Shown piece by piece: positions 301 to 62,431 of a DNA stretch of 64,000 nucleotides. Numbering within the stretch: position 1 is the first letter of the stretch; the number at the start of each line of letters is the position of its first letter. Origin of the DNA: Tridacna crocea (Eukaryota; Mollusca; Bivalvia; Cardiida; Cardiidae); contig OX031060.1 in the NCBI GenBank assembly GCA_943736015.1, positions 27,419,231-27,483,230 on the forward strand, written 5' to 3'. The translations under genes and the position numbers were made by a program. A model generated the notes under the pieces. That model made no database searches, had not been told where the DNA came from, and saw nothing but the letters and a program-made list of their open reading frames with translations.

Positions 301-3300
301 GTATGGGAAATTAGGTCATTTTAGTTATGCTCTGTGAAAACTATCAACCCAGATCAGCCCCAGTTTTAACAACCCTGAGGAAAGAAGCTTATGTAAACAT
401 TGTGAGAAAAGGAGAAAATGCTGGTCACCAGGCTTTTCTACTTTTGCTATAGTGTTTTTATCAAAATATTTGAGTTCCATTTGTCTGCAGATGCTTTGAA
501 TTTGGACAAATCTAATACTTTGATGTTTGGTAAAGAGATAATTACCATGGTGAAGAAGGGTTTGAAAAAGTTGAGAGGAAAGGTAAATTCCTGACACACT
601 GTTTAATTTGTAGTCTACAAATTCTTTCGATATTGACCAGTCTTTAATTTTGTCTTTTCATAGTTAATAAAACTGAAAACCTGTTTTTAATGTAGAAATT
701 GCTAATGCTTGCATGGTAATCGAATTGGTTCAGTTTGAAAATTTATTTTTTGAAATGAGCTGACAACACAGCATTTTAAGCTAGACTCTTTTCGAATTAA
801 CCTTTAACCCTTTACCACACAATGACGACTTTTAAGGCACCTGAGGAAGAAGCCTTTTGAAAATGTTGCAGAAAAAGGAGAAAATGCTGGTGACCAACAT
901 TTTCTCTTTTTCCCACAGTTTTCTACCCTATCAAAGCATCAAAGCAAAATTGCAGCCTTTGAGCCACTTTGAAATTGCTGTCTGCAAATGCTTTCAAATT
1001 GGATGGGTCTAACATTTTGTTGTGTGGTAAAAGGTTAACCAAACAATCTGGGGTTTTGACGACTTTGAAAAAGAATCCTGTTGAAAATGTCATGGGAAAA
1101 AGAGAAAATGCTGGTAACAAGCATTTTCTCTTTTTCCTACAGTGTTTTCTACCATATCAGACAACATTCTAAACATTTGAGTAACATTCGTCTTCTGCAA
1201 TTGCTTTCCATTTGGACAAGGGTAAAATTTTGTCAACTGGTAAAGGGTTTAACATCATGATCTTGTCCTTTCCCTGGTGTCATTGTCTGCAACATCATGC
1301 AAACATTTTGTAATAATCTCTGAAGATATTTATACCCCTGCAGAACAAATGTTTTCTTGAGTATAATGGAATCTGCCTGTCTGTCAGTGTGTCCATTGGT
1401 GTGTCCGTCTGTGTACAAATAATTGCCTGTTTCTGTCAAAGTGCTGGCGGTGGTATCAAGTCACATTTACTGATGGCTCTAGTTACTTCAGAATTGGACA
1501 AGTTTTTTATACAACGTCAAGGTAATGTTGATGTCACTTAAACAATACTAAGTCCTGGGATGAATTCATTGCAGCTTTCATCTTACCAAATGGACCCAAA
1601 CCTAGAATGCATAAACAACTGATTGCATTGTATCATAGGATCACACTAGAAGAAGGTGGTTGTACTGCTGAAAGCTTGTGTAGTTTATTATAATTAAAAT
1701 AGTCATTTTCTCAAGAAGAGGATATTATGTTTTGGAATAAATTCATGTGGAAGAAATAGGTTAACATTTTTGGATTATAAGAACAGTTAAATTGGATTAT
1801 TTATAGAGTTGTTAATTTTTTTAAAACCAGCAACAACTACAGACCCTTGCAATAATACAGGACCAATGCTTACATTGACCTGATTATGTGGGTCATTCTT
1901 AACTCTTTACCAGACAACAATTTTATAGACTTAACAAAATTGAAAACATTTGCAGACGACAATATAAATGTGGCTCAAATGGTGAAATTTGTCTTTGATA
2001 GGATAGAAAATATTGTGGATAAAGGAGAAAATGCTGGTAACCAGCATTTTCTCCTTTTTCCACAATGCTTTTAAAAGGCTTCTTTGTCAGAGTCATTAAA
2101 ACTGGGGATTTTGTGCAAATCAGTGAAACTGGAGCAAACAGTAGGAGGTAATGACAGTTTTGATAATTGAAATTGAATAGAAATCCTCTCTGAGGTTGTG
2201 TGTGATTTAAAAGGTGTTTAAAACATTTTACACATGTTAACCGCACATCGACAAATACACAGTTAAGTGACTGAGTGGGGGATCATAAATATCCTGGTTT
2301 GAAAACCTTCAAAGGACAAATTTATGGACATTCAAATATATATTCATATGAAAAAAAAAAAGGCAGTTTTTAGAATATTGGAATATTCGGTTCTATCCTT
2401 ACATGAAATGTATGCTTTGGAAGATTTATTTAATTGTCTTTTTGTACCTGTAAAGCACAAATCAGATAAACCTAGCCAGTTGACACACTGTGGCTCTTAA
2501 CTCTCTCTGTACCAGTGATGGCACCAGAAGCTTTTATTTACAGTGTAGATCAGGATCAGACAGCAGGGAACATGCAGTCTGATCTCTGATCTATACTGTC
2601 TAGTGTTTTATATTGGATTATAACTGAATTCGCTCTTTATCTTGAATTGAAACTGTATTTTTAGCCTTTGAGAGAATGCTGTACATTTATTCCATAATGA
2701 AAGTGTTATAACTGAAAAACTGAAAAAAGAAATTCCCATAATTGCCTTGCAGACAGCAGAAAGACTTAAAACAGTGTTTGCCTTACAGGCTGGATTGTCC
2801 CGCAAAGATAGAGAAAACTCCTGCTCTCCAATCAATGTGCTCCTCACTGCCAGAAGTATAACAGTGGGAACGTTCAGGGGAATTCCTCTTGAACCTATAG
2901 TATTATGTAAAAATGGTCTACGATTTTTTGTGGAAGGTATGTAGCTTCTCTTCTGTCTTACTTTGTTCATTTTTAATAGCCCGGCGGGCTGGCTTAATTG
3001 TTAGCATATCAGAGTTGTGACCTGGTGGTTGCAGGTTCCATACCCAGTACCCAGTTTAGGCAAAATTTCTTTTGGCAGTTTTTTTGCCTTTCATCTCTGC
3101 ATGTGAAAAAAGTATTCAGTGACTTGGAAAGGAATTTGAGTCGGTGCTACTTTTACATTGGTTTTTGCCAATGTATGTTATATATATGTGTTCGGGGCAT
3201 ATTATTCAATCAGATCATGAGAATTTTTTTTGCAGTATGATAAATTACATTGTCAGTACCCCTGAACCTGAAATTCCTACCAGTTTTGCATATCTGTGTG

Positions 3301-6300
3301 TAAATTAGTTCAAGCATCTTTAAATTTCTTACTGAAAAATTATCAGGAGACACATAATATAGGAATATTTTATTAAACGAAATGGTCATGACAGCATTCT
3401 GTATATGCGTTTACTGCGGTTGTTTGGGAATGACCAAGTAACAGTAACCAAGGAAGTCAATGTATGTTATTGCCATGTATCCATGTCTCATGCTAACTAT
3501 TTGGTCAACCTAGTCCTAGTAGCCACTCCCACTAAGTAAACAACATGAATCAAGCACTCATCAATGAGTCATTTTCCTTTGCTAGGCTAGCACTTGTTTT
3601 AACTTAAGCATTTTCTCCTTCTCCCACAATTTTTTCTACCCTGCTGGGAACAAATTTCCATTGTTGAGTTATTTTCATTTTGTCATTTGAAAGTGCTTTC
3701 AATTTGGACCAGTTTAAAATTGTTTCGTTTGGTAAAGAGTTAATAGAGATTGGACAATAGTTACTTATCTTAACTCTTTCCCAAACGACAAATTTTGGAC
3801 TCTTCTAAACCGAAAGAGTTTGCAGACAACAATTTTAGATTTTGAGAAAATGGCAGAAAAGTCTCAAAAAGGGTAGGAAACTGTGTGGGAAAAGGAGAAA
3901 TTGCTCGTTCTGAGCAATTTCTCCTTTTCCCACACTGTTTTTAAAAGACTTTTACTACAGACACGTAAAAACCAGGGCTTGTTTGGGAAAGGGTTAAATG
4001 AATTAAAAAGGATTTTTCCTGTCAGGAAAAAAGCCACAATCTGGCAATTCTAAGGGTTTTATGGTCAGACAATTTTACAAAATACATGTAGCAGATACTG
4101 TAGATCCAAGATCAGACTGCATGTTCTATGCAATCTAATTTTGGTCTACACTTTCTGCAAGAGGCTGTCTGATCTTGACCTACAAGTAACAATGCACACA
4201 AAAGCAACTTAGAGCTTCGTGCTCAGGGCTTTTCCAGGCTTTTCTTGTATGGGGCAAAAACCTACAGGGGTCATTTGGCCCTTCCCCTGTCCCATATACA
4301 AGTTTATTGCAAAAGGCAGATTTTTTTTTAGGATGTTCAGGTACTTTTGCAAATCCAAATTTCAAGGAAGGGTGAACAAGGAATACTGAGGTGCACTAAA
4401 GGCTAACCTTTGCAATGTTTTTTTGTGTGAATTTTCAGGCAACCAGAAGTCACACAGGTTTTCTATCTTCCCACAAGAGATACAACAGTGCTTGGCACAT
4501 TTTAGTGAAAGAACTACTAGTTACTTGTTTTTCCTTGTGTCTCAAGGATGTGGTGTTAGAACTAGAAAAGATTTGGGTATCAAGGAACATAAGGATCCTA
4601 CAACACCACCACCTGAACCTTATTATGATCCCTTTGGAGCAGGTATTGAAAATATCTCTGAAACACTTGTAGATTGGTTGGAACTTTGTGTCAGTCAATA
4701 AAAGTTTAGACTTATTAGTTATGAAAGCATTTGCACACAACAAAATGGGTAAAACAGAAATACAGTGAATTACCTTTGTTTTAAAAAAAAATGTGTGGAA
4801 AAAAGTAAAGATAAGCATTTCATTATTCACCAGCGTGTCTTCAGTTGCCAGAGTTTCTCTTCAAAAATATGAAGGATAACGTAAAATTTACTGGCTTAAG
4901 CTAGACTTGTTGATTTATTCCTTGTGCTTAACTCATTACTAAACAACAATATTTTAGGCTTGTCTGAATCAAAAGCATTTGCAGACGACAAAATAAAAGT
5001 GACTGAAAATTTGAACTTTCTTTTGTGAAGGATAGAAAATATTGTGGGAAAAGAAGAAAAAGCTGATTACCAGCATTTTCTCCTTTTCCAACAAGGTTTT
5101 CTGGAGGGTTCTTTCTCGGGGTCGTCAAAAGTAGGGATTGTGTGGTAATGGGTTTATAGAAGTTTGACTGTATGGCTCAGACTATAAGAAATGTCTTTAA
5201 TATCACACTGGCAAGGAGAAATAGAGGATCTTACATGAGTTTTTATAAATTATCATTTATATCAAAGGATTTGACTTAACCCTTTCCCAAACAATCCCTG
5301 GTTTTTACGGGTCTGGAATAATAGCCTTTTGAAAACCTTGTGGGAAAAGGAGAAAATGCTGGTAACCAATATTTTCTCCTTTTTCCACAATGCTTTCTAC
5401 CCTATCATAGACAGAAATAATCTTTTCAGAAAGAGTTGAATTGTCGTCTTCAAATGCTTTCAATTTGGTCTAGTCCAAAAGTTTGTCATTTGGAAAAGGG
5501 TTAAGAAACCACTTTCATCATACCCCTATTATGATCTGAAGAAGGCACTTATTGTGAGAATATTGTTTTATATAAGGGGGAAAAAACATGTATAAGTTAT
5601 TCATTACAGATATCTTATTTTCAAGGGTTGATTTTGTTTTAAATTCAGTTTGATAATTTTTACAAGCTTTTGTAAATTTCCACCCTAAGGAGGTGATTTT
5701 TTACTAATACATGTATTCTTTTCTCGGGCATCCTGTCGTAAAAACCTTGCTGTTCTCCAATACCAATTTCTGATCTTAATTCCCTGTATTTTACAGATCT
5801 TACCCATCAGATGATCACTGTGATCATGAGCAAGCTGGAAACCACTGTGATAGTTGAGTTCCAAAAGTACATGGACATGTTTAAGTCTTGGGGCAAACAG
5901 GGAGATGAGGCTTTCTTTATGGAGCTAACGGAACAGGAAGCAGATGAGGTTCGCAAACAGTCCCTCAGCAAGATGGTTTTTCCTCAGGTTGGAGTGGGGA
6001 CGATGGTTCAAGATCATGAATATAGTCAACAGGACGAAGAAAGGAGCAGGTCTCCCTCTCCGCCAAGAATTGGCTTTGTTGGCCATGTAGTCAAGTATGT
6101 TATTTATTTGACTACTTCATTGTGTATATAGTAATTCAACACATGGCCTCATTTAGAGTTCTTCAAAGGCACACTAGAAGCAAAAAAATAAACATTGTTG
6201 AATTCGCAATCTAGACAAAGTTATCCCTATACCAAACAATCCATGGTTTTTACAACTTGGAGGAAGAAGCCTTCTGGAGATATTGTAGGAAAAGAAGAAA

Positions 6301-9300
6301 ATACTGATAGCCAGCATTTTCTCCTTTTCAAACAATGTTTTCTACTCTTCTAAAGTCACAAGTTTTAATTTCTGAGTCACATTGATTTTCTGCCATTGCT
6401 GTCAATTTGGACAGGTCTTAGATTTTGTTGTTTGGTAAAGACCTAGTTCATACCATTACAAGTAAGAATATTATAATAAATCAAATAATGTGTTACCGTG
6501 CAATCTGTCAAAGTTCTAGTTGCCGGCAGAAAAATGTATCATAAGATTAGATCAAAAGTTGATTTTTTGGTTCCAGAATTATAATACACCCCCCACAATG
6601 TAGTGGAGGGGGGTATACTGGAATCGCCATGGCTGTCTGTCTGTCCATCCATCTATCTGTCAGTAGACACAAATTTGTCTGGAGCAGTACTCCAACAGCT
6701 TTTCACATACTGAAATTTACACACAGTGTTTCTGTATATATGAAGTTATGCATGTACAATTTTCATTACAAATTGAAAATTGAAAGCATTTGCATTAGAT
6801 ATGGCTTGAAAGACGATTTTCTTTTTTATTTAGAATGGTGTAAACAACATTTGGAAATTCTCTGCTTTTACTACAATATCTCTGTCTATATAAACACAAC
6901 GCATTTGAGCCACTTTTGCTTTGTCATCTGCAAATGCTTTGACTGTGGGGTTGTCTGACATTTTGACAATTTGTCATCTCCTAAAGTTATCTATTTATAA
7001 TCACAGATTGTTGACATACCCTCCACCACCAGAGAAGAGGGGTATCTCAATCACAAATGAAGACTTGTTCTGTCTCCAACAGGGAGAATTCCTGAACGAT
7101 GTTATTATCGATTTCTACTTGAAGTAAGTACCATTATCTGTAGCTGTGTACTACTCAATCCTTGATTTTTAATGAAGATCAAGAAAAAGGGTTTTGAAGA
7201 CATTATGGAAAATGTTGGTAACCTGCATTAATTTTTCTCGTTTTAGCACAAAGCTTTCCATCCTTTCAAAGACAATTTTCTCTGTTTGAACCATATGTAA
7301 TTTGTCATCTGTATATGCTTCAGATTTGGACAAATCCCACTATTGTTTGTTTGTTAGAGGGATTTTTTGTTTGTGAGAGCGTTAATGCTTAACCATTTAC
7401 AATCCCGACTTCTAATGACCCTGAAAAAGAAGTCTTTAAAAAACTTTGTCGGAAAAGGAGAAAAGGTTACCAGCATTTTCTCCTTTCCCCTCAATGTTTT
7501 GTATTCTTTCCAAAACCAATTCAATTTTTGAGCCACCTTGACTTACTCGTCTGCAAATGCTTTCAATTTAGACTAGCCTAAAAATGTCTTGTTTGGTTAA
7601 GGGTTAACTAGCTGAAAGTGGGGGGGGGTCCTAGTTCAGTAGTAACAGTGTCTGGTTATTCATCCAGAGGGTTTGGGTTCAATCCTCACCACAAGCATTT
7701 GACTTTTGCCTTAGTGTTTGTGGAAAAGACACATGAGAGCCCCAGCTTTGTACTTGTTAAAAGAAAGGAATAAGAGAGTCATTGCTGTGATATGACTAAA
7801 TTTACATTGTATTTAACTCATTACCAAATGATAAAATTTTAGACTGGTTCAAATTGAAAGCATTTGCAGACGACAAAATAAAGGTAACTGAAAAAATTGA
7901 AATTTGTTCTGGGAAGGGTAGAAAACACTGTGGAAAAAGGAGAAAATGCTGGTTACCAGCATTTTCTCTTTTTCCTACAGTGTTTTCAAAAGGCTTCTTT
8001 CTCAGGGGCATTAAAAGGAGGGATTGCAAGGTAATGGGTTGTTAATCAATTGTTTTTAGATAACATCAAATGGGCAATGCTTGATTCTTAATATGGATGC
8101 AATATTTATAGATCTTGGAAGCAGAGATCATGTAGCTCAGTCAGTTAACACAGGGGACTTTCAAGGTTGTGAGTTTGAATTCTGAGCTGAGCCACACTTT
8201 TTGGATTCACATTGCTTGTGGCCTGAATGCTCATATCTGTCTCACTGCTGAACATTTATAACAAAATAAGAGATATTTTGTTTTCATCAGTGTTCTAGAT
8301 TTTAAGCTGTTTCGCTGTCAAGCCTCTTCGGGCGTATATGTGCCGCTTTTGGAAGCCATTGTTTCTTCATAATTATTCAACAATGGCATCATAATTATTC
8401 TTATAGTATGCATGTTATAGTTATATATTTAAAGAAATACTTCAAAAAAAAAAAAGAAGTAATTTGCAGTGTGTTCATCCTGATTCATTAAATTATCAGT
8501 TTTATTAAAAAGATCACATATTTCAGCAATCATTTTTGCACTGTCTTAGCAATGTCTATTAACGGTCGTAATGTAATTTATTGACTGTACAGCTGTGTTC
8601 TGTTGCTTCATAACTAATAAAATTATGTTGTGTTTTACAGATATTTACATAAGGAGAAGATGAGTGAACAGGACAGAGAGAGAACTCACATATTTAGTTC
8701 TTTCTTTTACAAACGCCTTACACAGAGAATTAGGGGTGCTGCAATAGATGACGACCCCAACCTCCCGTAAGCCTTATCTATTTTTCAGTTTAGACCTTTG
8801 GTATAGGCATGGCCTTCGGTCTGTATTAAATTATTAACCAATAGCAGTTCTTTTGGAAAGCAGGCAATGAGCAGACAGTGACGGGAGGAATATTGTACAA
8901 AGTAAAGGTTAACCCTTTACCACATAATTTCGAGTTTTAATAACCCTGAAAGAGAAGCCCTTTGAAAACACTGTGGGAAAGGAACATCCTCGGATACCCC
9001 GGGGTCTCCCTATTTGCTACGCCTCATTGATCCCTGGGACAATTAATTGATTTTCCCTCGCTTTACCGCTGGCCGAATGCTGGCTTTTCATTGGTTCCAT
9101 CATCATTTTGTGATGGGCGAGTGGACTGTACGCTATGACGTTCCGTATCTATTTTCGGCGGCTGATTCAAAGTTTTATTAGTCAATTGTCCCAGGTGTCA
9201 ATGTAGCGTAGCAAATAGGGAGACTCCGGGGTATCCGAGGATGGGAAAGGAAGTAAATGCTGGTAACCAGCATTTGTTACCAGCATTTTCCCCCTTTTCC

Positions 9301-12300
9301 ACAATGTTTTCTACTCTGTCGAAGACAAAGTGCATCATTTGATCCAGATTGAAATTGTCGTGTGCAAATGCTTTCAATTTGTTTACCACACAAGTCCGAG
9401 TTTTAATAACCCTGAAAGAGAAACCTTTTGAAAACATTGTGGGAAAAGGAGAAAATGCTGGTTACCAGCATTTCCTCCCTTTCCCACAATGTTTTCTACT
9501 CTATCAAAGACAAATTGCATCATTTGAGCCACATTTAAATTGTCGTCTGCAAATGTTTTCAATTTGGACAAGGCTTAAATTTTGTTGTTTGGGAAAGGGT
9601 TAAAGAATCTCGAGGAAATCATGGGTAGGTGCTATGACAACCATGACATAAATGAAATAAAAGTTAAAAATCACGTTAAATATCTTAACCCTTTACTCCA
9701 TAGATACTCATTTCTACACATTCCTTGTAGGAGCATTTGGAAAACATTGTGGTAAAAGGTGAAATTACTCGTGACGAGCAATTTCACCTTTTGTCACAAT
9801 GTTTCCTATGCCATCAAAAGGTGTCATAACACACATAAGAAACTGCTTCATCCTTGTTGTTATTTAGGGTCAATTAGAGATACCATAGAAATGCCATATG
9901 GGATAAAGGGTTAAACAAACTTATTTCATCAATACAAATCTTCTCAACTGGCTTTTTTTCTTGTTGGGTAAAAATGATACAACACAAGAGTATTTTACTA
10001 CATATTTGCCTTTATTAATGATACAACACAAGAGTATTTTACTACATATTTGCCTTTATTGTTTTAGTTTGCAAGAAAAGCGCCATGCTAGAGTTAAAAC
10101 ATGGACCAGACATGTAGATTTATTCAAGAAGGACTTCATTGTGATTCCAATCAATGAACAGTAAGTGACAACCTTAATCCTTTACCACATGGCAAAATTT
10201 TAGACCTATCCAAATTGAAAGCATTTGCAGATATCAATTTTCATAGTGGCTCAATTGATGCCATTTTCCTTTGATAGGGTAGAAAACTTTGTGGGAAATG
10301 GAGAAAATGCTGGTTGCCAGCATTTTCTCCATTTCCCGCAATGTTTTCAAAAGGCGTCTTCCTCAGGATCGTAAAAGTAGTCATTGTGTAGTAAAGGGTT
10401 AATGAACTATTATTGGTTCTTATATTGTTTTTCTGTTATGTGATACAGGATGTTCCTGATGTTTGTCTTTCATATCATCAAAAAACCCTCCCTCACACAC
10501 ACACATACACACACACAAATGTAAAAAAGTAATGAATCATTCCCTCATGTTCAAGCATTGTATACCTTCAGTGTAAATTAGCTAACTCAAATAACTTTTG
10601 TTTTTCTACATTATCATCCACTAGATGGCATTCTACAAATACTCATCTATCTCATTTGGGCATCCAGGGTACAGAACTGGACTACTTTTCTACGCAACAA
10701 CCGTTACTCTGAATTTCAAACTAATATAAACATTTACTCAATAAAACGGTACGAGAGTGTGATCTATTCAGCTCTGATCAGCAGTTTAGAGAAATCACAA
10801 GCTAAAACACACCTGATTTCTCCTCAAACATATTGATAAAAGCTATTTTCTTCATTGCTACTTTATATGTCATATTACTACAATCTCCAACATTTTTGGG
10901 AGAATGATGCGTCATATAAGACGGGTCGAATCTTTGAAGAATATGACATGTGCAGACAACAGTTTTTCTCTTACATTTTTTGTGCCGACTTGTTTTATCT
11001 ACTGTTGATCGAGTTTGTGGAGAAGAAACTCATTCTAACTAGGCCTGTCTCTGTCCCTTGATTCCTTACATAAACACACAACTAAATATTAAAAAAGAAA
11101 AAGGTTTAACTTTACACTTCATGATTTGTATCTGTTTTTCAGTGCCCACTGGTTCCTGGCTATAATATGTTACCCCTGGTTGATGGAGGCAGTAGAAAAC
11201 AAGTACATTCCCAATAGATCTGTCCCACCATGCCTAGACTCGTTTAATATACCCACACCCCCACAACCCACAGATGATAATACAGATGATATGGAGTCCG
11301 AAGAAGCAGAGGTGAGTTACTATAACTAGCATGTAGATTGGCTTTCATTGATTGTAAGCACATTGACTCATCTCTGTCTATATGGGAAGACAGTGAATGC
11401 CTAGAAAGGGTATTATTTGCAGTATTAACACTTAATTAAACAACAAATTTTTGGACTGGTCCAAATTGAAAGCATTTGCAGACAACAAAATAAATGTGAC
11501 TCAAAAATTGAAACTTGACTGAAGAAGGGTAGGAAACATTATGGGAAAAGGAGAAAATGCTGATAACCAGCATTTTCTCCTTTTCCCACAATGTTTTCAA
11601 AAGACTTCTTTCTCTTGGTTGTAAAAGCCAGGGATTGTTGGGTAAAGGGTTAATTTAATTTTAACTCGATTATTTTACACCAACTTTGAAAAGTTTTTAA
11701 AATATAAATCACTCTCATTTACTTCCATAGAAATCGGTACTGTGGCTGTAATCAGGGTAGCTCCAAAGTTTGACCAAACTCATCATTGGGTTTGACACAT
11801 GAACCTCCTATGTAAAAAGTCCACACCCTACCTCTACACCACTGTCTCCCCACACATATGTAATATTTGTCATCAAACAATAGCAATTCATAGATGGCTT
11901 TGGTTCTTTGTCCATTTAATATAACTGAAATGCTAGTGAAAACAAACAAATTCTTTGACAGATTTGGGGTAAACATTGTTGCAAGTGGAATGTAAATTTA
12001 TAGATATGAGAATGATTGGCAGATCAGTTCATAATATTTAGCTTACTTTTGTACAAATATTACTTATATACCAATTCAAACTATTTTTGCTTCTTATTTT
12101 ATTAATATTTACTACTATTAGAGTGCCTACCTTAACCCTTTGGCTGCTAAACATGACTCGCTGACCTTTTGCGGACATTGTAGATCAAGATCAGACTGCA
12201 CAGAACGTGCAATCTGATCTTTGATCTGCACTGTCCGATGAGGAGATATGATTTCCTGAAACACAACTTTAAAAAGCAGCAATATTTGGGTTATCAGTAT

Positions 12301-15300
12301 CGAATCGAAAATTTACTTATAGTTTCATAGCAGGATAAGGGTTAGATTAATTAGCTTTTACTGAAGATGGGTAAAGATCTATGATCTAAGACTACGCAAG
12401 ATGTTCTGGCTGATTTTGGTATAAATTGTTCAATAATCCATGAGATATTATGATCAAAAGCTTTATTAACTGTTTACCAAACAATCTCAAGTTTTCATGC
12501 TCCTAAATTTGAATAATTTTAAAAGCATCGTGGAAAATGAGCATTATGGAAAACAAACTTCTGAACTCTATCAAAGACAAGTCACATCATTTCTGCCACT
12601 TCAAATTTGTTGTCTGCAAATGCTTTCGATTTCAACAAGTTTGTAAATTTGAAAAAAAAAGGTATCTTTAGTAGTAGTGTTAGTTAATATACTGTGTCTG
12701 CAAAATATACTAAATCAGCCTCATCAGCTTACAGGTTAAAGATAAAAAAGTTAGGTTCTATCTATATACATACCATGCTTGGTTAATGTATTTGTTGCTC
12801 CTATGGTAATTGTACAACCTAGAGTTTTTTTTTTATTAAATAGAATCCGATTCATGAGCAGAAACCAGATGTTCCTGTCACCCCAGTATCAGAGTCCACA
12901 AACGCTGAGCCAGAAGGATCAGATGTGAATTCGCAGGTCAAAGTAGATCAACCAGCAACATCGGAGACCACATGCCAAGAAACAGACAGTGAGAATAAGC
13001 CAGAAAGTATGGAAATTGACCAAAATGGAGACAGTGTGGGAGATGGCACCCAGACTGTGATGGAGACAATGGATACAGGAGAGAGCACCAAAGGTGATGA
13101 GAATGAGAATACTGAGGAAACTAAACAAGAGATGAAAGATGCAGAGACCAGTCCAGAGACACCAGTGTCAAAGTCAGCCCTGTATCAAAAAGTTCAGAAT
13201 ATTAGAGTACGTACTTAAATTATTACCAAACAGCAATAATTTAGGCTTGTCCAAATCCAAAAGATTTGCAGATAACAAAATAAAAGTGACTGAAAATTTA
13301 AAATTTGAATTGTTGAAGGGTACATACATGTGGGAAAAAGGAATAGATGCTGATTACCAGCATTTTCTCCTTTTCCCGCAATATTTTCAAAAGGCTTCTT
13401 TCCCAGGGTCGTCAAAAGTAGGGATTGTGTGGTAATGGGTAAACATCAGAATTACCATTAACCCTTTACCCCATAAGGCATTTCTATGGTATCTCTAATC
13501 GACCCTAAATAACAGCAAGGATAAGCCGTTTTTTATGCATATATGACACCTTTTGATAGCAAAGAAAACATTGTGACAAAAGGTGATATTGCTCGTGACG
13601 AGCAATTTCACCTTTTGCCACAATGTTTTCCAAAGGCTTCTGCAAGTAGTGCGTAGAAATGAGTATCTGTGGAGTAAAAGGTTAAGACTGTGAATTTTAA
13701 TTTCACATATAACCATTGGCCATGAGATTACATTGGTCTATCACAGAATACCAAAACTCATTGCTCGTTCGTTGCACACAGTTACCAATAATAGTATATT
13801 GGCGCATCATCTATATGATTATCATATATAATAATACAAGGTTTGCAAGATAATTACAGAAAATTTGACCTCCAGTCCCAATGAAAGAGAATATTGAACA
13901 GAAAATATAAAATCAACCTATTGGTTGGTACTAAAGGCTTCAGAAATTAATTTTTCTTTTCATCTGAGAACTTGAAGGTTCCAAACAATACTTCCAACCA
14001 ATCATTGAAGCTTTAATATTTTTCAGATCACCATGCCCTACCATCACACAGTTAATTATCACCCAGCAAATTATGATTTAAATATCCTTTGTAAAGAAGA
14101 ATTGAATAATTTTTTGGTTGATGTTTTGATGGAAATGTTTAAATGACATTTTCTCTCTTATATTTCATTTTTTTCACCTGATCCTTTGTCACAAATTTCA
14201 CCTTCCATTTGACATTTTTTCAAATGTATATTTTCCATCTAATGAGTAATGATTGAAATCTTTGGCACATCTGAAGAGTTAATTCGTGTGAATTATAACT
14301 GAATCATGTGGAGGCATTTCGATTTTCAGAAGCTTGTTATTAAATTATGAGATTAACCTCAATGCAGATTGCAAGAGTTGGTTGAAACATTTCAGTGTAA
14401 AGGAAAAAAAGATATTTATGAATCCACCTACACCAAAGGCAAGGTCGTCTTTTCCGATTTTGATTAAATATTTCCTTGCAGTAGGGACGGGGGTAATATT
14501 TTCTGTCGTTTTGTTGCACACCACGAGTTATTACTGGTATATACAATATAGGGTATGCACCAATGTGCTCTTTGTAGAAACATTTTTTATGAGTGACCAA
14601 TGAAAATTTCAGCATTTAGTGATAGACAAATGGTGTTCAAAGGCCTTTGGTAAAATTTACTAAGTGTGAAAGCATTATAGAAACGTGAGAAATTGCTCCT
14701 CGGGTAATATCTCCATTTATCATGATGTTTGAAACAGTGGTGAAGAGCAATAGACAAAAAATTTATCACTAAATTTAAAGACTCAACTCTTTACCAAAGG
14801 ACAAAATTTGAGACTTTTTCTAAATTTAAAGCAGTTGCTATTGAATGTGGCCCATCTGATGATTTTAATTATTGAAAGGGGGGAACGACATGGTAAAAGG
14901 AGAAAATGCTGGTCACCAACATTTTCAGGGTTGCATCTACAACACGGGATTAAGGGAATCTAGCATCAGAATCTAAGATCCCGCCCAAATGAAATGTATA
15001 TGTGAAAACAATTTCACACTAACATAAAAGAAAGCCCACAAAAATTGCATGACCAATGCTTCCGATGATGGGGGAAAAGGTGAAGAAAAGAACTTAAGGG
15101 AATAAAATGTAATTATTTGCATAGGTCACAGGAACAGTCATTTAAAACTGATAAACTATAGACTGTCTGGTTATTATTATGAATCACTGCACAGCTCACA
15201 CTGTTGATTGTCAGTCGTGCCAAATGTGACAGTTTAGAAAAAAGAACCCCTGGCAAATCCACAGGCGACCAATAATGTCTATACAAGATTCTAGAAAGAT

Positions 15301-46097: not shown

Positions 46098-46332
46098 TTA
46101 ATCCATTATCACACAATCCCTACTTTGACGACCCCAAGAAAGAGGCCTTTAGGAAACATTGTAGGAAAAGGAGAAAAATGCTGGTAACCAGCATTTTCTC
46201 CTTTTCCCACAATGTTTTCTACTCTTCATAAAAAAAAATCAAATTTTCAGTCACTTTTATTTTGTCTTCTGCAAATGCTTTGAATTTGGACAAGTCTAAA
46301 ATATTGTCGTTTGGTAATGACTAATGAGTTAA
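46098..46332 (+). mobile_element. HP-1 element, full length
   Basis: TTAATCCATTATCACACAA ... ggtaatgactaatgagttaa; perfect core gctggtaaccagc. Shares TTAA with the next copy. Confidence 0.87.
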
Positions 46333-46562
46333 CTCTTCGCCACACAATCCCGACTTTTAACTGCCCTGAGGATAGAGGCTTTTGAAAACATTGTGGGAAA
46401 AGGAGTAAATGCTGGTAACCAGGATTTTCTCCTTTTCCCACAATGATTTTTACCCTCCCCAAAACAAATTTCTAATTTCAAGTCACCTTAATTTTATAAA
46501 TTTGTCTACAAGCGCTTTCAATTTGGACAAGTAAAAAATTTTGCCATTTGGTAAAGAGTTAA
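46329..46562 (+). mobile_element. HP-1 element, full length
   Basis: Starts in the shared TTAA (ttaactcttcgccacacaat); core gctggtaaccagg; end gtaaagagttaa. Confidence 0.87.
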
Positions 46563-46781: not shown

Positions 46782-47010
46782 TTAACCCTTTACCGAACAA
46801 TCCCTGGTTTTTATGACCCTAAGGGAGAAGCCTCCTGAAAACATTGTGGAAAATGGAGAAAATGCTGGTAACCAGCATTTTCTCCTTTTCCCACAATGTT
46901 TTCTACTCTATTACAGTCAAATTTCAATTGTTGAGTCACATTTATTTTGTTGTCTGCAAATGCTTTCAATTTGGACAAGCTTACAAATTTGTTGTTTTGT
47001 AAAGAGTTAA
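46782..47010 (+). mobile_element. HP-1 element, full length
   Basis: TTAACCCTTTACCGAACAA ... gtaaagagttaa; perfect core gctggtaaccagc. Confidence 0.88.
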
Positions 47011-47207: not shown

Positions 47208-47416
47208 TTAACCCTTTGACACACAATCCCGATTTTTAACGACCCTGAGATAAAAGCCTTTCGAAAACATTGTAGGAAAAGGAGAAAATGCTGGTAACAC
47301 AATGTTCTCTACCCTTCCTAACACAAATTTTAATTTTTCAGTCACATCTATTTGATTGTCTGCAAATGCTTTCAATTTGGGCCAGTCTATGACTTTGTTG
47401 TTTGGTAAAAGGTTAA
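47208..47416 (+). mobile_element. HP-1 element, right stem deleted
   Basis: TTAACCCTTTGACACACAA ... gtaaaaggttaa; reads atgctggtaacacaatgtt, skipping the right stem. Lies just beyond the 3' end of the transposase-derived ORF. Confidence 0.8.
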
Positions 47417-49109: not shown

Positions 49110-49336
49110 TTAACCCTTACCAGACAACAAAATTGAAGCCTTGTCCAAATTGAAAGCATTTGCAGATGACAATTTCAATGTGGCTCAAATGGTGCAATTA
49201 TTCTTTGATGGGATTGAAAATATTGTGAGAAAAGGAGAAAATGCTGGTTACCAGCATTTTCTCCTTTTCCTTCATTGTTTTCAAAAAGCGTCTTTCCCAG
49301 GGTCGCTAAAAGTTGGAATTGTGTGGTAAAGTTTAA
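49110..49336 (-). mobile_element. HP-1 element, near-perfect
   Basis: TTAACCCTTACCAGACAACA ... gtaaagtttaa; perfect core gctggttaccagc. Lies about 45 bp upstream of the candidate acceptor of the transposase-derived gene. Confidence 0.87.
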
Positions 49337-49351: not shown

Positions 49352-49502
49352 TTAACCCTTTACCACACAATCCCCTTTTCCCACATCTACCCAGCTGGAG
49401 ACAAATTTCAACTTTGGAGTTGTGTTTATTTTGTCGTCTGCAAGTGCTTTGAATTTGGACCAGTCTAAACTTTTGTTGTTTGGTATTATGGTATAGAGTT
49501 AA
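49352..49502 (+). mobile_element. HP deletion derivative, left stem lost
   Basis: TTAACCCTTTACCACACAA runs straight into ccccttttcccacatctacc. Shares its right TTAA with the next copy. Confidence 0.8.
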
Positions 49503-49730
49503 CCCTTTCCCAAACAATCCCTGGTTTTTATGACCCAAAGGAAGAAGCCTTCAGAAAACATTGTGGAAAAAGGAGAAAATGTTGGTGACCAGCATTTTCT
49601 CCTTTTCCCACAATGTTTTCTACTCTTCTGAAGTCAAGTTTCAATTTTTCAATTACCATGTTTTTGTTGTCTTCTGCTATTGCTTACAATGTGGACCTGT
49701 CTAAAATTCTGTTGTTTGGTAAAGGGTTAA
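49499..49730 (+). mobile_element. HP-1 element, full length
   Basis: TTAACCCTTTCCCAAACAA ... gtaaagggttaa; core gttggtgaccagc. Confidence 0.87.
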
Positions 49731-50268: not shown

Positions 50269-50497
50269 TTAACCCTTTCCCAAACAGTCCCTGGTTTTTA
50301 CGGGTCTGGAATAGTTGCCTTTTGAAAACATTGTGGGAAAAAGAGAAAATGCTGGTAACCAGCATTTTCTTCTTTTCCCACAATGTTTTCTACCCTATCA
50401 TAGACAGAAATAATCTTTTCAGCAAGAGTTGAATTGTCGTCTGCAAATGCTTTCAATTTGGTCTAGTCCAAAAGTTTGTTGTTTGGGAAAGGGTTAA
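50269..50497 (+). mobile_element. HP element, sister of 5276-5504
   Basis: TTAACCCTTTCCCAAACAG ... gtttgggaaagggttaa. HP-3-type arms with HP-1 core gctggtaaccagc. Most bases match the copy at 5276, a distant recent pair. Confidence 0.88.
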
Positions 50498-50894: not shown

Positions 50895-51117
50895 TTAACC
50901 CTTTACCAAACAGTCCTTGATTTTCGCGACCCTAGGATTGAAAGCTTTTGAAAACATCGAGGAATAAGGAGAAAATGGTGGTAACCAGCATTTTCTCCTT
51001 TTCCCACAATGTTTTCTACCCTCCAAGAACAAAATTCAATTTTCGAGTCGCATTAATTTTGTCGTCTGCAAATGCTTTCAATTTGGACCAGTCTAAAATT
51101 GTCTGGGAAAGGATTAA
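50895..51117 (+). mobile_element. HP-1 element, full length
   Basis: TTAACCCTTTACCAAACAG ... gggaaaggattaa; core gtggtaaccagc. Lies about 30 bp from the duplicated LTO1 exon. Confidence 0.85.
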
Positions 51118-51249: not shown

Positions 51250-51478
51250 TTAACCCATTACCACACAATCCCTACTTTTGATGCTCCTGGAAAAAGAAGC
51301 CTTTTGAAAACACTGTGGGAAAAGGAGAAAATGCTGGTAACCAGCATTTTCTCTTTTTCCCACTATGTTTTCTACCACTCACAGAACTAATTTCAAATTT
51401 TCAGTCCCTTTCATTTTGTCTTCTGCAAATGCTTTCGATTTGGACAAAGCTAAAATATTGTCTTTGGTAATGAGTTAA
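51250..51478 (+). mobile_element. HP-1 element, full length
   Basis: TTAACCCATTACCACACAA ... ggtaatgagttaa; perfect core gctggtaaccagc. Confidence 0.88.
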
Positions 51479-54920: not shown

Positions 54921-57900
54921 GTACAAACATATGCCGATATGGCTTTTTTTTTGGCTGCATAAAAAACGGGTAAACAATAATGAATTAAACCGCAAAGAGC
55001 TGCTGCTCAAGAGATTCATGGATTGAATCATTCTGAATTTGAAAGAGTAGGAATAACTATGGAAGTTAGAGACATTGACAAGCTTTTCCCCTTCTTCCAA
55101 CATGTCAAATTCCATCTTCTAGAGTAGTGCCTATGAAAAAAGGGAATGTTTCAGTGTTTGGTAAAGAATTATTTAACTCTTTGGATGTCAGACACATAGA
55201 CCCCTGACCATTTAGACCCCTTACAATTTTGGTGAAACTTAGACCCCTGGGCGATATAGACCCCTGGGCGATATAGACCCCTATTTCAGTGAGAAACTTA
55301 GACCTCCTTTTCCAAAAAGATATTTACATACTTTATTGACTATAGATGCCCATTGATTGTGGTAGTTGTTAATCTTGTCTTGCAACATGAATAAGAAATT
55401 TGACTTTTGAGACCATGTATTAATATGCAGAAATAGTAGATGAAATGATTTTTACTTGCCAATAGTCAACAGAAAGGTCAAACATGAAAACAAATTAATG
55501 TCCTTTACGAAAAAAATGTTCCTGTGTCTCATGCTGTTGAAGAAGCCAATAGTAGGAGCCGTTTTGTGTATGAGCGGATTCATTTCCAGTTGATCCATGA
55601 TCTTTGTTCATGACGACTGTTTTTCATTCAAAATTAGTTGGACTGAATGTCAGAGTTAACACCCAATATCATACTGGGATGAGCTTATAGTTGGACCATC
55701 ATACTTTTATATTCATCTTGGGCTTGACAGGACTTGTCAGTCTTCTGAAGGCCAAACTTTTTTGGGAGTTTAGAACCTGTTAGTTTGATTTTCTTTCAAT
55801 ATTTGCAGGTATGGCAAATTTCACAGTAAGATTGCTAAAGTAAGAATTATCTGCAATGACACATGGTGTAAATACTGACTAATCGCAAAGTTTTGGCTAC
55901 ACGAAAAGAAAATCAGCAGACTGCAACATGTTTAATGGTCACAATGTAGAGTGCCAGAGCACATACTTTTGAGGCCGACCTCTGTCTGATAAAGCCTAGA
56001 GTTTGGTTATCAAAGAGTAGGACTAGTTTACCAAAATAAACTCTTAAATGAAATTAATGCACCGCAGATAGGGTAGAACATTGAAAGAAAATGAAAAATT
56101 GTTCTCACTTGATATTTTCAAATGTGTTTTACCTTATGCTTTAGCAAAATAGAAAATCTTTTATTTCATAATTTAAGTAGAAGACAGTCCAAAGAAAGAC
56201 AGCTTTAGAAAAGATTGTGGAGAAAGGAAAAAAAGTAGATATATACCATTAGTTGAACCACTCTTAATTTGTTGTCTTGCCTTGAGTTTTGTCATGTGCT
56301 AATGAGTAAAACAATGTTTTCAGGCATCCAGATGACCCAAATGTTGTTCCTTTAGCAACAATGGCTGTACTTCCAAGGCATGCCCATATTCCAGACATCC
56401 CAGGGGATACAAATATCTCTTTTGAAGCCATGTTGTATATTTTTGGAGTGATTGTGATGTGTTTGCAGTATATCAACTTATACAAGACTGTATGGTGGCT
56501 GCCACACTCACATGCTAGTTATGCTCTAGTGGGTGTTTTTATTTTTGTTTTCAGTTCCTATATATTCAATTTGCTTTAAATTTACATCTGTATAATCAGT
56601 AAGGTGTTCTTCTGATAAAAAGAATGAATTCTGCAAGTTAAACAGGAGAGAGTTTAATGGACATGAAAATATTTATGATGAAGAAAATGTTGGAGAAGTT
56701 GTACAGAAAATTGATAAAAAAGGAACAATCACTTTAACCCTTTCCCAAATGACAAACTTTTGGACTAGACCAAATTGAAAGCATTTGCAGACGACAATTC
56801 AACTCTTGCTGAAAAGATGATTTCTGTCTATGATAGGGTAGCAGCATTTTCCCCTTTTCCCACAATGTTTTCAAAAGGCTACTATTCCAGACCATTAAAA
56901 ACCAGGGATTGTTTGGGAAAGGGTTAACAGGAAATTGCTCCTTTTCCTGAAAATTTTAGAAACCTGTATTTTACAGGTTTGTAAAATGTTTTATGTGAAA
57001 CGTTATTTCATAAGCAAAATTATTCAGCCTTTTAAATGTCTTGTTTTGTTTCAGAACTTCTATCTGATAGATCCCTATCTAGTGGGGTTTTTGTGTGTGC
57101 TTACAAGCAGACGACTTATTTGGTGCTTTGTGCAAGAGGTATGTAACAATTTCCCACAAAGAATGCACATAAGTAAAAGAAAAAAAAAACCTTTACAAAC
57201 AGTTGTTTTTTTCAATGACCCCAAATATGCAGGCTTTTGACAACATAGTGGCAAAAAAAGAAAATGCTTGTAAACAGCATTTTGTCCTTTTCCAGAATGT
57301 TTTCTATTCATCTCTGAAAAATTCCATGAAATTGTTTACATTGAGTTTACTGTCTGCAAAATCTTTCAGGTTGCATGAGGCTAATACTTTGTAGTGTGAT
57401 AAAGAGTTTACAGTTATCTATTCAGCTAACTTATCCTATCGCTGTAACTCATGAATAATACATAAGGAATATAATGTTTTAGTAATTTGTATGGGCTTGT
57501 TTGTCTTAGAGCTGGTTTAGTTGAGCGGGATATGAGGATTTTCTTATGTAGTGAGGAACAAATGCAAGCCACAGGAAATACAATAGGAAATACAACATAA
57601 AAATTCCTTTCCAACTGCAAAAATTTGAAATCATAGACAATTTAATTCAAAATGACTTAAAAAAGTGTGTACCTATGTAGGTTTTGTCATATACACCATA
57701 TTTTGAACAATATTACACACTGTGTATGGATTTTTTTTCTATCGCTTACAATTTAATGTGAAATACATGTACGAGGGGAGTTCAATAAGTTCGTAGAACT
57801 CGGTATTTTTCTATACAGTTCAAAATTTCTTCTTTCATTTTTTGGCAGTTGAATTATAACAGCCATTTAGTCAGCTCTTACTTTTTTTTGCTCTTACTTT

Positions 57901-60900
57901 TTGTTGGAAAACCTATACCCATCGACCTCCCCTCATACTTTACCCAAAAGAATTATAGGTATGTTATAAATCTTGTTATAAAGATGCAGATGAAAATCAG
58001 TACTTGCCAATTTGAATACTGTAGTTAAATCTGCCCTAGATAATCCTGAATTTAGAAAAAAAAAAACCTTTACCACACAGTCCCGACTTTAAAAAATCCT
58101 GAGGAAGAAGCCTTTGAAAACATTGCAGGGAAAGTAGAAAATGTTGTTAACCAGTATTTTTTTTTCCTTTTCCCACAAAGTTTTCTTACCTTCACAAAAC
58201 AAATTTTAAGTTCTCAGTAACTTTTATTTTGTCATCTGCAAATGCGTTCAATTTGGACCAGTCTAAAATTTTTGCATTTGGTAAAGAGTTATATTCTTTA
58301 ACATTTGGACACAGTAAATGAACCCTTTCCCAAACAAACCCATGTTTTTACATGTGTGCATTACAACTCTGTTGAAAATCTTGCAGGGAAAAAGAGAAAT
58401 TGCTCATTATGAGCAATGTCTCCTTTTCTCACCAGGTTTTATGCCCTATTGGAGAACTTCCTGCCATTTTTTCTTTCAAATTTAACATTGTAGTCTTCAA
58501 ACTCTGTCAGAGTGGACGAGTCTAAAATTTTTCCTTTGGGAAAGAGTGAAACGTGGCTCAGTTTGTAGGACTTATTTGAGAAGGTCAGACAATTTGGTGA
58601 GAAAACCTGCAACCTTTCCTTTTCTTACAAAATTTTAATAAGCTATTCTCAGTAACCCTGGTAGGAAAAACTCAAATTTATTTGATAGAGGGTTATGAGA
58701 CTGCTATTTTGATTCCAAATCTCTTCTGAAATTAGCTGACCTGGTCATTCAGTTAGTTACATAATTATAGGGCTTGAAATATGGAGGTTTCACATTTGAA
58801 TCTCAAGTATGGCTGATTAATGAGGATTAATGACGGTGAATTCAGCAGGATTTATTCCATGCCCATCACTGATCATTGAGGCAATTTTTCATCTATAGTT
58901 GAGTACATATGTTACTGTATTTTATTTTTCATGATAATTTCTAGGTTTATGGAAGTCGTACTGGTACAGGTATATTGTACTGGCTGGTCCAGGGTATCAA
59001 GGGAATAGTTATCACCCTGGCTGTTTGTGCTCTGTGCTACACAGGATACCATGTTTTAAAAAAACACTCGCTTTTATACTGCCTGTTCCTATGTTGTCCG
59101 TAAGTAGTGTGTTCTCTATATGATCCGACAGTTTTATGTCAGGTATTTAACTCTGTATCAGATGAGGAAATTCTAAACAATATAAAAGCATTAGTGGATA
59201 AGAAATTGAAATGGTTCAAATGGTGAGATTTATCTTTGAAATGTAGAGGGTATAGTATAACAAAATGCTTTCCCATATTAGTTATCTATTCTTTCATAGA
59301 CAAATCTAAGACAAATCCAATCACAGACATTTGATTTCAACTGTTGCCTGCAAATGTTGTCAATACAAACAATACAGATTTCAAAACATGCTTCTACATT
59401 GCCATTGTTCTTCTTTTCATTCATTTGCATTACATTTACATTACACTACTTTCATCATGATTTATTTACCTGTTACTGTCTTACTGTAGAGGATAATTGC
59501 TTTTATATTCATCAAGGTATCCTGCTGATAAGTTTTATCATGTAGATGATTCAACCCTTTCCCAAACAATGCCTGGTTATGATGACCCAAGAAGGCTTTT
59601 AAAAACATCGTGGGATAAGGAGAAAATGATGGTAACCATTATTTTCTCCTTTTCTCACAATGTTTTCTACCCTTCCAGTGTAAAATTCAATTTATCACAT
59701 AAAACCTCATTACTCATGACTTATTTTCGATAATGCACTAGTGTTTTATCATTTTTTGGGTCCTGGTTCTGATCTGTTTTCAGTTATAAGCACATGAAGC
59801 TTGAGAAACCAACCACAATTTTTGCCGTACTTCATACATGTACTGTTTCAGTATTTCAGAGAAAAATGATGTCACTATTTTTAAAAGGTTTATATGTGGA
59901 AAGGTTTTGATTTGCAAGTTGAATAAAAAGCAAGAAATGCTGTGAAAGTCTTAAAATCAACAGTATTGCAGAAATACAAAGACTTAACCCCTCTGTGAAC
60001 TATTTCACTCTTCCTTTGGTATGAATGTCAAAGATCTATTTACATCTGTATTTACACATTTGAAATCAAATAATAATTGTAAACATGGTTCCCTGAACGG
60101 CATAGAGGCTGAAGGTGAGGATGCAGTATATTTTTCTGTCTGATCTTTGTTTTATGTGATAAAAAGAATCTTACAGTAGTGTTTATGTATTATCATTTTT
60201 ATCAAACTCACTCACTAAAATGTATTTGACACTTGCCAAGAATGGTGTCCTACAATTTTAGATAACTCGTTTGATAAAAATGATATTATATAAACATGTA
60301 AGATCCTCTAATTTTGAGTCAAGTTGATTTCGCAGTCTGCAATTGCTTTTTAACTTGGCCGAGTCTAAAATTTTGTTGTGTTGGGTTTAGAGAAGTCAAT
60401 TGTGGTAAAAGTAGAAACTTATAAAAGCAGTGTAATCTGTGGATGGTTAATTGATGATAAGAATTGTTACAGTGTTCATACAACTTCTTAAAGCTTCGAA
60501 TTTTCTTTTGGCCATGTTTATATGGGAAAGAAGCAGTTTTCTTGTACTATTCTGCTGAAAAAAAATCCTGGAAGGTGTGGATAGGTCACATGTACTTGTC
60601 ACTGGTTACCTAGATAGGACTAGAAAACTTGATTTGATGGTTGTAAGTTGAAACTGCCAATTTTCTGCATACAAATTTCTTTCATAATAATTTCTCTTTT
60701 TTTATGTGGTTGTCTTTTACAGGATGATGACCTATGTATTATTGTTTGGATTGACGCTAAAGCCACTCTACTTAAAATCATTAAACTGGCCATCATTGGT
60801 CACAGAGAAAAGTACTCCACGTCACAGGACCAAAGATTTGTTAGAAAAAGATACAATACTCTCACACAACTGTGTTTTAAGTCCTGACATCATACGAGAA

Positions 60901-61018: not shown

Positions 61019-61276
61019 CTAATAATCCTTCGCCAAAAATCCAATGTTTAATCTACCCTTCAGGAAAAGCTTTTGAAAGTATTGTGGGAGAAGGGGGATA
61101 TGTAGAAGGAGGATGTAATTATCACCACTTTCTCCTTTTCCGACAAGCTTTTCCACCTGTTTGAAATTGACCTTTCTGAAAAGAAAGAAGTGTAATTTCC
61201 TGCTGCTTATATTTAGTCACCTGCAAACACTTTCAATATGAACAAATCTGAAATGTTGTCATATAGAAAAGAGTTA
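61019..61276 (+). mobile_element. HP-1 element abutting TMEM39 exon 5 donor
   Basis: ctaataatccttcgccaaaa start, about 10 bp after the exon; stem eroded (ggaggatgtaattatcacca); end gaaaagagttaa. Confidence 0.65.
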
Positions 61277-61574: not shown

Positions 61575-61775
61575 TTGACTCTTTACCAAATAATCCTGGG
61601 AGAGAGAGGTGTTTGAAAATATTGTTGGAAAAGGAGAAAATGTCAACAAGTATTTTGTGCTTTTCCCACAATGCTTTCTACCTTATGATAGAAGTCATCT
61701 TTTGAGCTACATTTAATATTTTGCTTACAAGTGCTCAATTTGATTGTCTCCAAAGTTTTGTTGTTCAGTGATGAA
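61575..61775 (+). mobile_element. HP-1 element, degenerate
   Basis: gactctttaccaaataatcc start; stem ggaaaaggagaaaatgtcaa; end gttgttcagtgatgaa. Confidence 0.6.
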
Positions 61776-62202: not shown

Positions 62203-62431
62203 TTAACTCTTTACCACACGAGAAAATTTTGGACTAGTCCAAATTGAAAGCACTTGCAGACGACAAAATAAAGATGACTGAAAAATTAAAATTTGGCTTG
62301 GAAAGGGTAGAAAACACTGTGGGAAAAGGAGAAAATGCTAGTTACTAGCATTTTCGCCTTTTCACACAGTGTTTTTAAAGGGCTTCTTTCTCAGGGTCGT
62401 TAAAAGTCGAGATTGTGTGGTAAAGAGTTAA
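62203..62431 (-). mobile_element. HP-1 element, full length
   Basis: TTAACTCTTTACCACACGAG ... gtggtaaagagttaa; perfect core gctagttactagc. Confidence 0.87.

What the first reader, a model, noticed from the sequence alone, without database searches (positions are those of the whole stretch)
804..62431. A very dense superfamily of TTAA-flanked elements with a near-perfect central hairpin (HP)
More than 55 recognisable copies of a roughly 230-bp element, in both orientations, fill introns and intergenic DNA. Termini read TTAA-CCCTTT...AAAGGG-TTAA, the target and end signature of piggyBac transposons. The centre is a palindrome of about 60-66 bp (stem CATTGTGGGAAAAGGAGAAA, core GCTGGTAACCAGC) with essentially no loop, flanked by unequal arms (about 75 and 110 bp; the longer one holds GTCGTCTGCAAATGC). 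Ordinary piggyBac MITEs do not need a long internal palindrome, so the hairpin may have its own role, such as transposase binding, replication fork capture or small RNA production.
Basis: partly seen in the sequence, partly recalled or inferred. Interest (0 to 1): 0.75.

Follow-up and report, generated by a model that had tools for sequence, protein, structure and literature searches.

The report
Hyperabundant TTAA mini-transposon with conserved hairpin
A short, gene-less piggyBac-type jumping element with a large built-in DNA palindrome has multiplied until it makes up roughly a fifth of this animal's genome, and the palindrome's two arms have kept matching each other as the element evolved, which suggests that the palindrome helps it spread.

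Summary
The window carries 91 profile hits to a 227-position TTAA element, 49 near full length (24% of bases; none in shuffles). It is genome-wide: the exact 31-bp palindrome core occurs 183,553 times, and 15 arbitrary 8-kb stretches extrapolate to about 0.65 million near-full copies, about 21% of 1.05 Gb. Homology stops at TTAA. Two insertions have empty counterparts with a single TTAA; a third reads TTTA. Ends are CCC(T/A)TTACCA, as in piggyBac, unlike Kolobok. No autonomous partner was found in 41 transposase loci (45 of 118 matches). The hairpin is not incidental: between subfamily consensuses it differs by 8% while the arms differ by 38%, and changes are compensated (128 of 180 doubly changed pairs stay complementary; shuffled mean 42). 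Genome-wide, 10,018 sites carry a symmetric variant core and 10 a half-and-half core. In twelve post-insertion comparisons the stem decays like the arms, so constraint seems to act on mobile lineages, though numbers are small. No RNA-wobble signature. Best reading: a piggyBac-mobilised MITE whose palindrome is a conserved DNA-level cis element, probably a transposase-binding site; binding is inferred.

The parts
46783..47009 (+). best-scoring near-full copy; stem 46837-46903; taken as type copy
   Evidence: nhmmer 224.6 bits, model 1-227; DNA fold z -7.03; stem coordinates
349..539 (+). near-full copy (model 11-226)
805..1037 (+). near-full copy
1038..1249 (+). near-full copy abutting the previous one
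1900..2119 (-). near-full copy
3771..3996 (-). near-full copy, variant stem with 3 compensated pairs
4929..5154 (-). near-full copy
5277..5503 (+). near-full copy
6223..6441 (+). near-full copy
7146..7361 (+). near-full copy, diverged
7389..7606 (+). near-full copy
7814..8040 (-). near-full copy
9382..9602 (+). near-full copy
9686..9913 (+). lineage B copy (same hairpin, other arms)
   Evidence: lineage B query 188.4 bits
10175..10401 (-). near-full copy
11426..11652 (-). near-full copy
12467..12651 (+). near-full copy (model 1-209), diverged
13223..13440 (-). near-full copy
13459..13684 (-). lineage B copy
   Evidence: 183.1 bits
16412..16641 (-). near-full copy
17904..18138 (+). near-full copy, diverged
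20028..20250 (-). near-full copy
21319..21544 (+). near-full copy
22624..22843 (+). near-full copy
23088..23311 (-). lineage B copy; arms 49% from main consensus, stem 1 of 33 pairs broken, 4 compensated pairs
24213..24420 (+). near-full copy
25118..25341 (+). lineage B copy
   Evidence: 192.1 bits
25877..26074 (-). near-full copy
26719..26942 (+). near-full copy, variant stem with 3 compensated pairs
27016..27219 (-). near-full copy with deletion at the stem's edge
27417..27617 (+). near-full copy with stem deletion
27686..27911 (+). near-full copy
27991..28191 (-). near-full copy with deletion at the stem's edge
29598..29811 (-). near-full copy, diverged
30930..31144 (+). near-full copy
31688..31894 (-). 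near-full copy; flanks alike with L049:5767-5971 (post-insertion duplicate)
44503..44704 (+). near-full copy with stem deletion
46099..46319 (+). near-full copy
46330..46561 (+). near-full copy
47209..47415 (+). near-full copy, part of one hairpin arm lost
49111..49331 (-). near-full copy
49500..49729 (+). near-full copy
50270..50496 (+). near-full copy
50896..51116 (+). near-full copy
51251..51477 (+). near-full copy
56735..56926 (-). near-full copy with stem deletion
57188..57408 (+). near-full copy, diverged
58064..58291 (+). near-full copy
58321..58547 (+). near-full copy, variant stem with 4 compensated pairs
61023..61276 (+). near-full copy, diverged
61578..61773 (+). near-full copy, diverged
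62204..62430 (-). near-full copy

Best explanation
This is a family of miniature, protein-less piggyBac-type transposons (MITEs). A piggyBac transposase cuts at the CCC..GGG ends and inserts the 230-bp unit into TTAA, duplicating it. Shown here: sharp TTAA boundaries, one empty site with a single TTAA in relatives of the host element and one in paralogues, piggyBac-like ends, recent activity, and an extrapolated share of about a fifth of the genome. The central 67-position palindrome is part of the working element. Shown: its sequence is held more tightly than the arms between subfamilies and its two arms change together, while duplicated dead copies mutate it no less than the arms (small numbers). 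So propagating copies seem to have needed it. Inferred: it acts as double-stranded or cruciform DNA in cis, most likely as a palindromic binding site for a dimeric transposase domain that helps recruit the enzyme or bring the ends together. Not shown: which transposase, and binding itself.
For: TTAA boundaries. Empty sites: L023 against other pB-1 copies (116 of 117 bases, one TTAA) and L044 against paralogues (112 of 124). piggyBac-like CCCTT/CCCAT ends (PMC10813416 passages). piggyBac transposases are present, some in families with nearly identical copies. Abundance: 183,553 exact cores, reversed control 0; random sample 20.1% coverage (bootstrap 14-27%); scaled 21%. Covariation: 128 of 180 both-changed cells stay paired against 41.7 +- 5.6 shuffled and 19-36 slid; 42 cells against 11.4 +- 3.2, 0 of 500 shuffles, on 77 stems; 40 pair-keeping double changes on a tree built from arms only against 5-9 slid; 10,018 symmetric variant cores against 10 half-and-half ones. 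Constraint: subfamily consensuses differ 0.378 in arms, 0.203 in TIR, 0.084 in stem (0.28, 0.13 and 0.045 without lineage B); post-insertion duplicates differ 13 of 730 in stem and 22 of 1485 in arms, P = 0.013 against a 0.5 ratio. Palindromic sites bound by CRD dimers at piggyBac/piggyBat ends (PMC11707139 passages). pB-2, pB-3 and pB-5 of this genome show short inverted repeats inside one end, by eye.
Against: No autonomous element with these ends was found; 73 of the 118 piggyBac matches were not read, and in many loci read the transposon's own ends could not be recognised. The palindrome is central and 67 positions long, whereas the CRD sites described are subterminal and short. The similarity of a stem half to the left TIR is modest (best p = 0.004 uncorrected; 0.03-0.7 for other same-strand versions). 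Most stem changes in single copies are uncompensated (557 single breaks against 40 kept doubles). The stem/arm divergence ratio is about 0.5 even for the closest pairs, so a lower mutation rate in the stem is argued against only by 35 differences in duplicates, from 12 comparisons that are not fully independent. Arms of diverged copies are aligned to one profile, which may inflate arm distances. The third empty-site case reads TTTA, not TTAA.
Confidence: 0.6

Rival explanations
1. The arms stay matched only because each arm is copied from the other (template switching or cruciform repair); the hairpin has no function.
For: Many compensated changes are transversion swaps (AT to TA, GC to CG), which need no paired intermediate. 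Rare alleles also show excess pairing (16 against 5.0 shuffled at allele frequency up to 5%). In two-ended copies 11 of 17 deletions of 10 nt or more are centred in the stem (P = 0.003), as expected of hairpin-forming DNA (general knowledge).
Against: Unbiased copying keeps symmetry but should not slow divergence; yet the stem consensus differs 4.5-fold less than the arms. Duplicated dead copies show normal stem divergence.
Confidence: 0.2
2. The hairpin works as RNA: read-through transcripts fold into dsRNA that feeds small-RNA silencing or a host regulatory RNA.
For: Perfect 33-pair stem of precursor-like length; copies lie close to coding-like sequence.
Against: One-sided changes that would be G-U on one strand (168) about equal those on the other (185; 265 others). 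Subfamily consensuses are Watson-Crick in 32-33 of 33 pairs. No Rfam match at gathering scores in the window. Orientation before 19,300 is 16 + to 13 -.
Confidence: 0.12
3. The palindrome is a fossil of origin: two shorter TTAA elements joined end to end, so that right-end-like and left-end-like sequences face each other.
For: A stem half matches the left TIR at 13 letters with one mismatch and one gap (CCTTTACCACACAAT / CCTTTTCC-CACAAT).
Against: Weak statistics for the other TIR variants; a fossil would not be conserved above the arms and compensated.
Confidence: 0.1
4. A TTAA element of another superfamily (Kolobok or other) rather than piggyBac.
For: Kolobok also duplicates TTAA, and its KolobokP lineage is rich in bivalves (PMC9587614 passages).
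Against: Kolobok ends are 5'-RR..YY-3'; these are CCC..GGG.
Confidence: 0.05

Closest known systems
piggyBac superfamily non-autonomous elements (MITEs)
   Same: TTAA duplication, short imperfect TIRs starting CCCTT or CCCAT, no coding capacity, about 230 bp, high copy number
   Different: long central palindrome conserved in sequence and symmetry across subfamilies; extreme share of one genome (about a fifth); partner transposase unidentified
piggyBac / piggyBat end palindromes bound by the transposase CRD dimer (PMC11707139, passages)
   Same: palindromic DNA inside the element used by a dimeric transposase domain
   Different: those are short and subterminal; this is 67 positions long and central, and binding is untested
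Kolobok and KolobokP (PMC9587614, passages)
   Same: TTAA duplication; found in molluscs
   Different: ends RR..YY, here CCC..GGG
L. pectinata haemoglobin-gene 'consensus sequence 1' MITE-like repeat (PMC4732748, passages)
   Same: mollusc promoter and intron MITE-like repeat said to fold stably
   Different: its sequence was not in the passages seen, so identity with this family could not be tested

Membership tests
piggyBac superfamily | insertion at TTAA with 4-bp duplication | tested here: met
   boundaries at TTAA; single-TTAA empty sites for L023 and L044; one further case, L025, reads TTTA in the empty copies
piggyBac superfamily | 5' end CCC(T/A)..., short TIRs | tested here: met
   CCCTTTACCA and CCCATTACCA ends; motif list from PMC10813416 passages
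piggyBac superfamily | DDE_Tnp_1_7 transposase in the element or in a partner with the same ends | tested here: inconclusive
   118 matches in the genome; 41 loci read (45 matches), none bracketed by these ends other than through MITE copies
MITE | small, non-coding, TIRs, target duplication, high copy number | tested here: met
Kolobok | TTAA duplication with 5'-RR..YY-3' termini | tested here: not met
   termini CCC..GGG against PMC9587614 passages
structured RNA family | match to an Rfam model; wobble-tolerant covariation on one strand | tested here: not met
   0 Rfam matches in the window at gathering scores; 168 against 185 one-sided changes

The most novel reading that the evidence does not exclude
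The palindrome is a portable cis-acting DNA module, kept while the arms and TIRs of different lineages drifted apart, that let a gene-less 230-bp unit outcompete its own autonomous parents and fill about a fifth of a gigabase animal genome.
Probability: 0.3. Interest if true: 0.8.

Novelty: new variant of a known kind. Interest (0 to 1): 0.62.

Why it matters
A single gene-less family reaching roughly a fifth of a 1.05-Gb animal genome would be among the most successful DNA-transposon derivatives, with a copy number of the order of human Alu (both comparisons from general knowledge, not from a call). A family this large lets cis requirements of transposition be read from evolution: symmetric and half-and-half stems can be counted genome-wide. 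It asks a concrete question, whether an internal palindrome makes a piggyBac MITE more mobile. It may also bear on the large unclassified DNA-transposon fraction of some bivalve genomes, for example 34.9% in Tridacna crocea (PMC10858879 passages), though this host is not identified.

Tried and rejected
Autonomous partner: 41 loci were read, covering 45 of 118 piggyBac matches, most with 1.5-2 kb on each side. Own ends were recognised for five families: CCCTTTATATAC, CCCTTGTCATGC/CCCTAGTCATGC (two), CCCTTTCAGCGC and CCCATTTATGCCT; none is CCCTTTACCA. For many other loci no convincing ends were found. In 7 loci (L007, L009, L025, L032, L034, L035, L036) TIR-like ends lie on both sides of the transposase, but each coincides with a MITE hit. 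Viral contigs: 0 exact matches to two stem patterns. A DNA search of the own genome found nothing because very common words are skipped. Literature: search listings 7, 21, 49, 60 and 99 showed no TTAA MITE with a conserved central hairpin; passages of PMC8905726, PMC11592408 and PMC10813416 had none either. The library lacks most subscription papers, and Repbase/Dfam were not searchable. Truncation breakpoints do not clearly cluster at the palindrome centre. Genome-wide counts of one-pair intermediates and of the lineage B core did not complete, so only one symmetric variant and one chimera count exist beside the main core.
Full report
What is there. The window holds a dispersed element of about 230 bp with TTAA at both ends. 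A profile built on the window finds 91 non-overlapping hits there: 49 near full length, 55 on + and 36 on -, 24.2% of the bases. Five shuffled windows give none. Hits that reach the model's ends keep TTAA and CCC(T/A)TT..., and conservation falls to background just outside TTAA; the anchoring itself selects for TAA, but the outermost bases (94% and 95%) lie outside the model. Looked for without that selection, TTAA stands at both ends of 37 of 82 near-full copies, at one end of 31 and at neither of 14. The consensus folds into 33 contiguous pairs round a single central base; one copy folded as DNA is 7 standard deviations below its shuffles. In the window plus L001-L048, 103 of 119 long palindromes fall inside hits of this family.

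How much there is. The window is typical. Fifteen 8-kb stretches, one at a round coordinate on each of C1-C15 of the same genome, carry 146 hits and 71 near-full copies. Coverage is 20.1% (bootstrap over stretches 14.4-26.8%; single stretches 5-54%); without one stretch holding a tandem array (L047) it is 17.7%, and 18.2% at E <= 1e-10. The exact 31-bp core occurs 91,619 + 91,934 times in the genome, and its reversed control 0 times. The genome density of this core (0.175 per kb) agrees with the sample (0.167 per kb, 20 occurrences), which scales to about 1.34 million hits, 0.65 million near-full copies and 221 Mb. The window itself has only 4 exact cores (0.06 per kb), so its copies look older than average; scaling by the window alone would give an implausible 68% and was not used.

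How it moves. Of 55 two-ended copies tested by joining flanks, 17 gave spanning matches and 3 are clear empty sites. L023:844-1070 lies in a piggyBac element (pB-1) whose other copies have the same stretch with a single TTAA (116 of 117 bases in the alignments seen, to L011, L009 and L008; further copies are listed by score). L044:3731-3959 has paralogues nearby with a single TTAA (112 of 124). L025:3350-3578 lies in another pB-1 copy, but the empty copies read TTTA there (120 of 122). The other 14 matches, mostly to other copies of the family or of lower quality, were not counted. pB-1 copies are 96-99.9% alike. Among eight chosen high-scoring copies, differences from their common consensus run from 4 to 23 of about 227 bases, so some movement is recent. 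In the other direction, piggyBac elements sit inside MITE copies (L007; L034). The ends match the CCCTT/CCCAT motifs of piggyBac (PMC10813416, passages) and not Kolobok (PMC9587614, passages). The partner is missing: 118 piggyBac matches exist, 41 loci covering 45 of them were read, and none shows these ends as its own within the flanks fetched.

The hairpin evolves as a unit. Over 168 distinct copies and 33 pairs, 180 cells changed on both sides, of which 128 are complementary; shuffling gives 41.7 +- 5.6 complementary and sliding the partner gives 19-36. A count with a separate tool on 77 distinct stems without indels gives 42 compensated cells against 11.4 +- 3.2, and 15 pairs against 7.8, with 0 of 500 shuffles reaching either. 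On a tree from the arms only (140 distinct copies of 332 hits), 40 branches change both partners and keep the pair, against 5-9 when slid; on internal branches 8 of 10 double changes keep it. Against this stand 557 single breaks (66 on internal branches), as expected of decaying copies. In the whole genome, one symmetric variant core (two pairs changed) occurs at 10,018 sites; the core with one arm of each kind occurs at 10. Shared descent of that variant contributes to the first number. The second shows that the two arm types are hardly ever mixed; forms with a single changed base were not counted, because those searches did not complete.

The hairpin's sequence is also held. Consensuses of five clusters of at least four copies (82 of 140 copies) differ on average by 0.378 in arms, 0.203 in TIRs and 0.084 in the stem, and keep 32-33 of 33 pairs; without the lineage B cluster, whose arms are poorly aligned to the profile, the six remaining pairs average 0.28, 0.13 and 0.045. 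Lineage B (for example L035:3349-3575, L013:3532-3758, window 23088-23311; 13 copies above 140 bits in the window and L001-L053) has arms about half different and the same stem with compensated changes. When pairs are binned by one half of the arms and measured on the other, the stem differs about half as much at every depth, including the closest pairs; that alone could mean a lower mutation rate. Copies duplicated together with their flanks after insertion test this: 13 of 730 stem positions and 22 of 1485 arm positions differ (ratio 1.2; P = 0.59 for a difference, P = 0.013 against a true ratio of 0.5). These are 12 comparisons chosen from the 67 pairs to represent separate insertions and duplications; some share a copy. 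The numbers are small, but they point to constraint on the copies that spread. Two-ended copies also carry 11 of 17 long deletions in the stem, which is 30% of the length (P = 0.003), so a perfect hairpin in source copies is kept in spite of loss.

RNA or DNA. One-sided changes that would be wobble pairs on one strand (168) or on the other (185) are about equal, there is no Rfam match in the window, and orientation in the first 19.3 kb is 16 to 13 (whole window 55 to 36; all loci 176 of 332 on +). Both transitions and transversion swaps are compensated. This favours a DNA-level symmetry. In piggyBac and piggyBat the CRD dimer binds palindromic end sequences (PMC11707139, passages), and pB-2, pB-3 and pB-5 of this genome show short inverted repeats inside one end, by eye. 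A stem half resembles the left TIR (best p = 0.004 uncorrected; other same-strand versions 0.03-0.7). I therefore infer, with moderate confidence, a transposase-binding or synapsis role. Templated copying between arms may well act too, but it does not explain the slow divergence.

What is known. The kind of element is known (piggyBac MITE). The combination of a conserved, covarying central palindrome with this abundance was not found in the papers searched (listings), a limited library.

Noticed in passing
window 47596-49077 (-): Open 493-codon frame of a pogo/Tigger-like transposase (DDE_1 and HTH_Tnp_Tc5; the Tigger label is recalled) between MITE copies.
   Followed up: no
window 33207-38292: ORFs, two of them with RNase H matches, of a probable retrotransposon region; no MITE hits between 31,894 and 41,845, so perhaps a younger insertion.
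   Followed up: no
L017, L018, L019, L020, L021 (C15, C3, C5, C9, C10): Five 4.1-kb segments 99.5-99.98% alike on five chromosomes, with a piggyBac-like match without stops and MITE copies at fixed places; the repeated unit is larger than the loci and its ends were not found.
   Followed up: partly
L047 206-2736: Tandem array of about 920-bp period whose three units each carry three MITE copies: a satellite-like array made from this MITE.
   Followed up: partly
L035 3162-4503: 1.34-kb insert in a pB-2 copy with inverted ends TGTTCTGCGCAA.. and a repeated TATA at the junctions, itself holding a lineage B MITE.
   Followed up: partly
window 22294 and 22416; also L045:1755: Other near-perfect palindromes (GATTAGCCTGCGCAG..CTGCGCAGGCTAATC type) outside the family.
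   Followed up: no
window 40917-41017 and 42831-42946: Tandem palindromic 31-bp units GGGTACGAGTTCTC../..GAGAACTCGTACCCT.
   Followed up: no
window 18995-19294 (+): Exon-like frame with Ulp1 peptidase match (PF02902), probable host gene whose introns may hold MITE copies.
   Followed up: no
window 52496-53240 and 63686-64000: Tandem arrays of 166-bp and 145-bp units.
   Followed up: no
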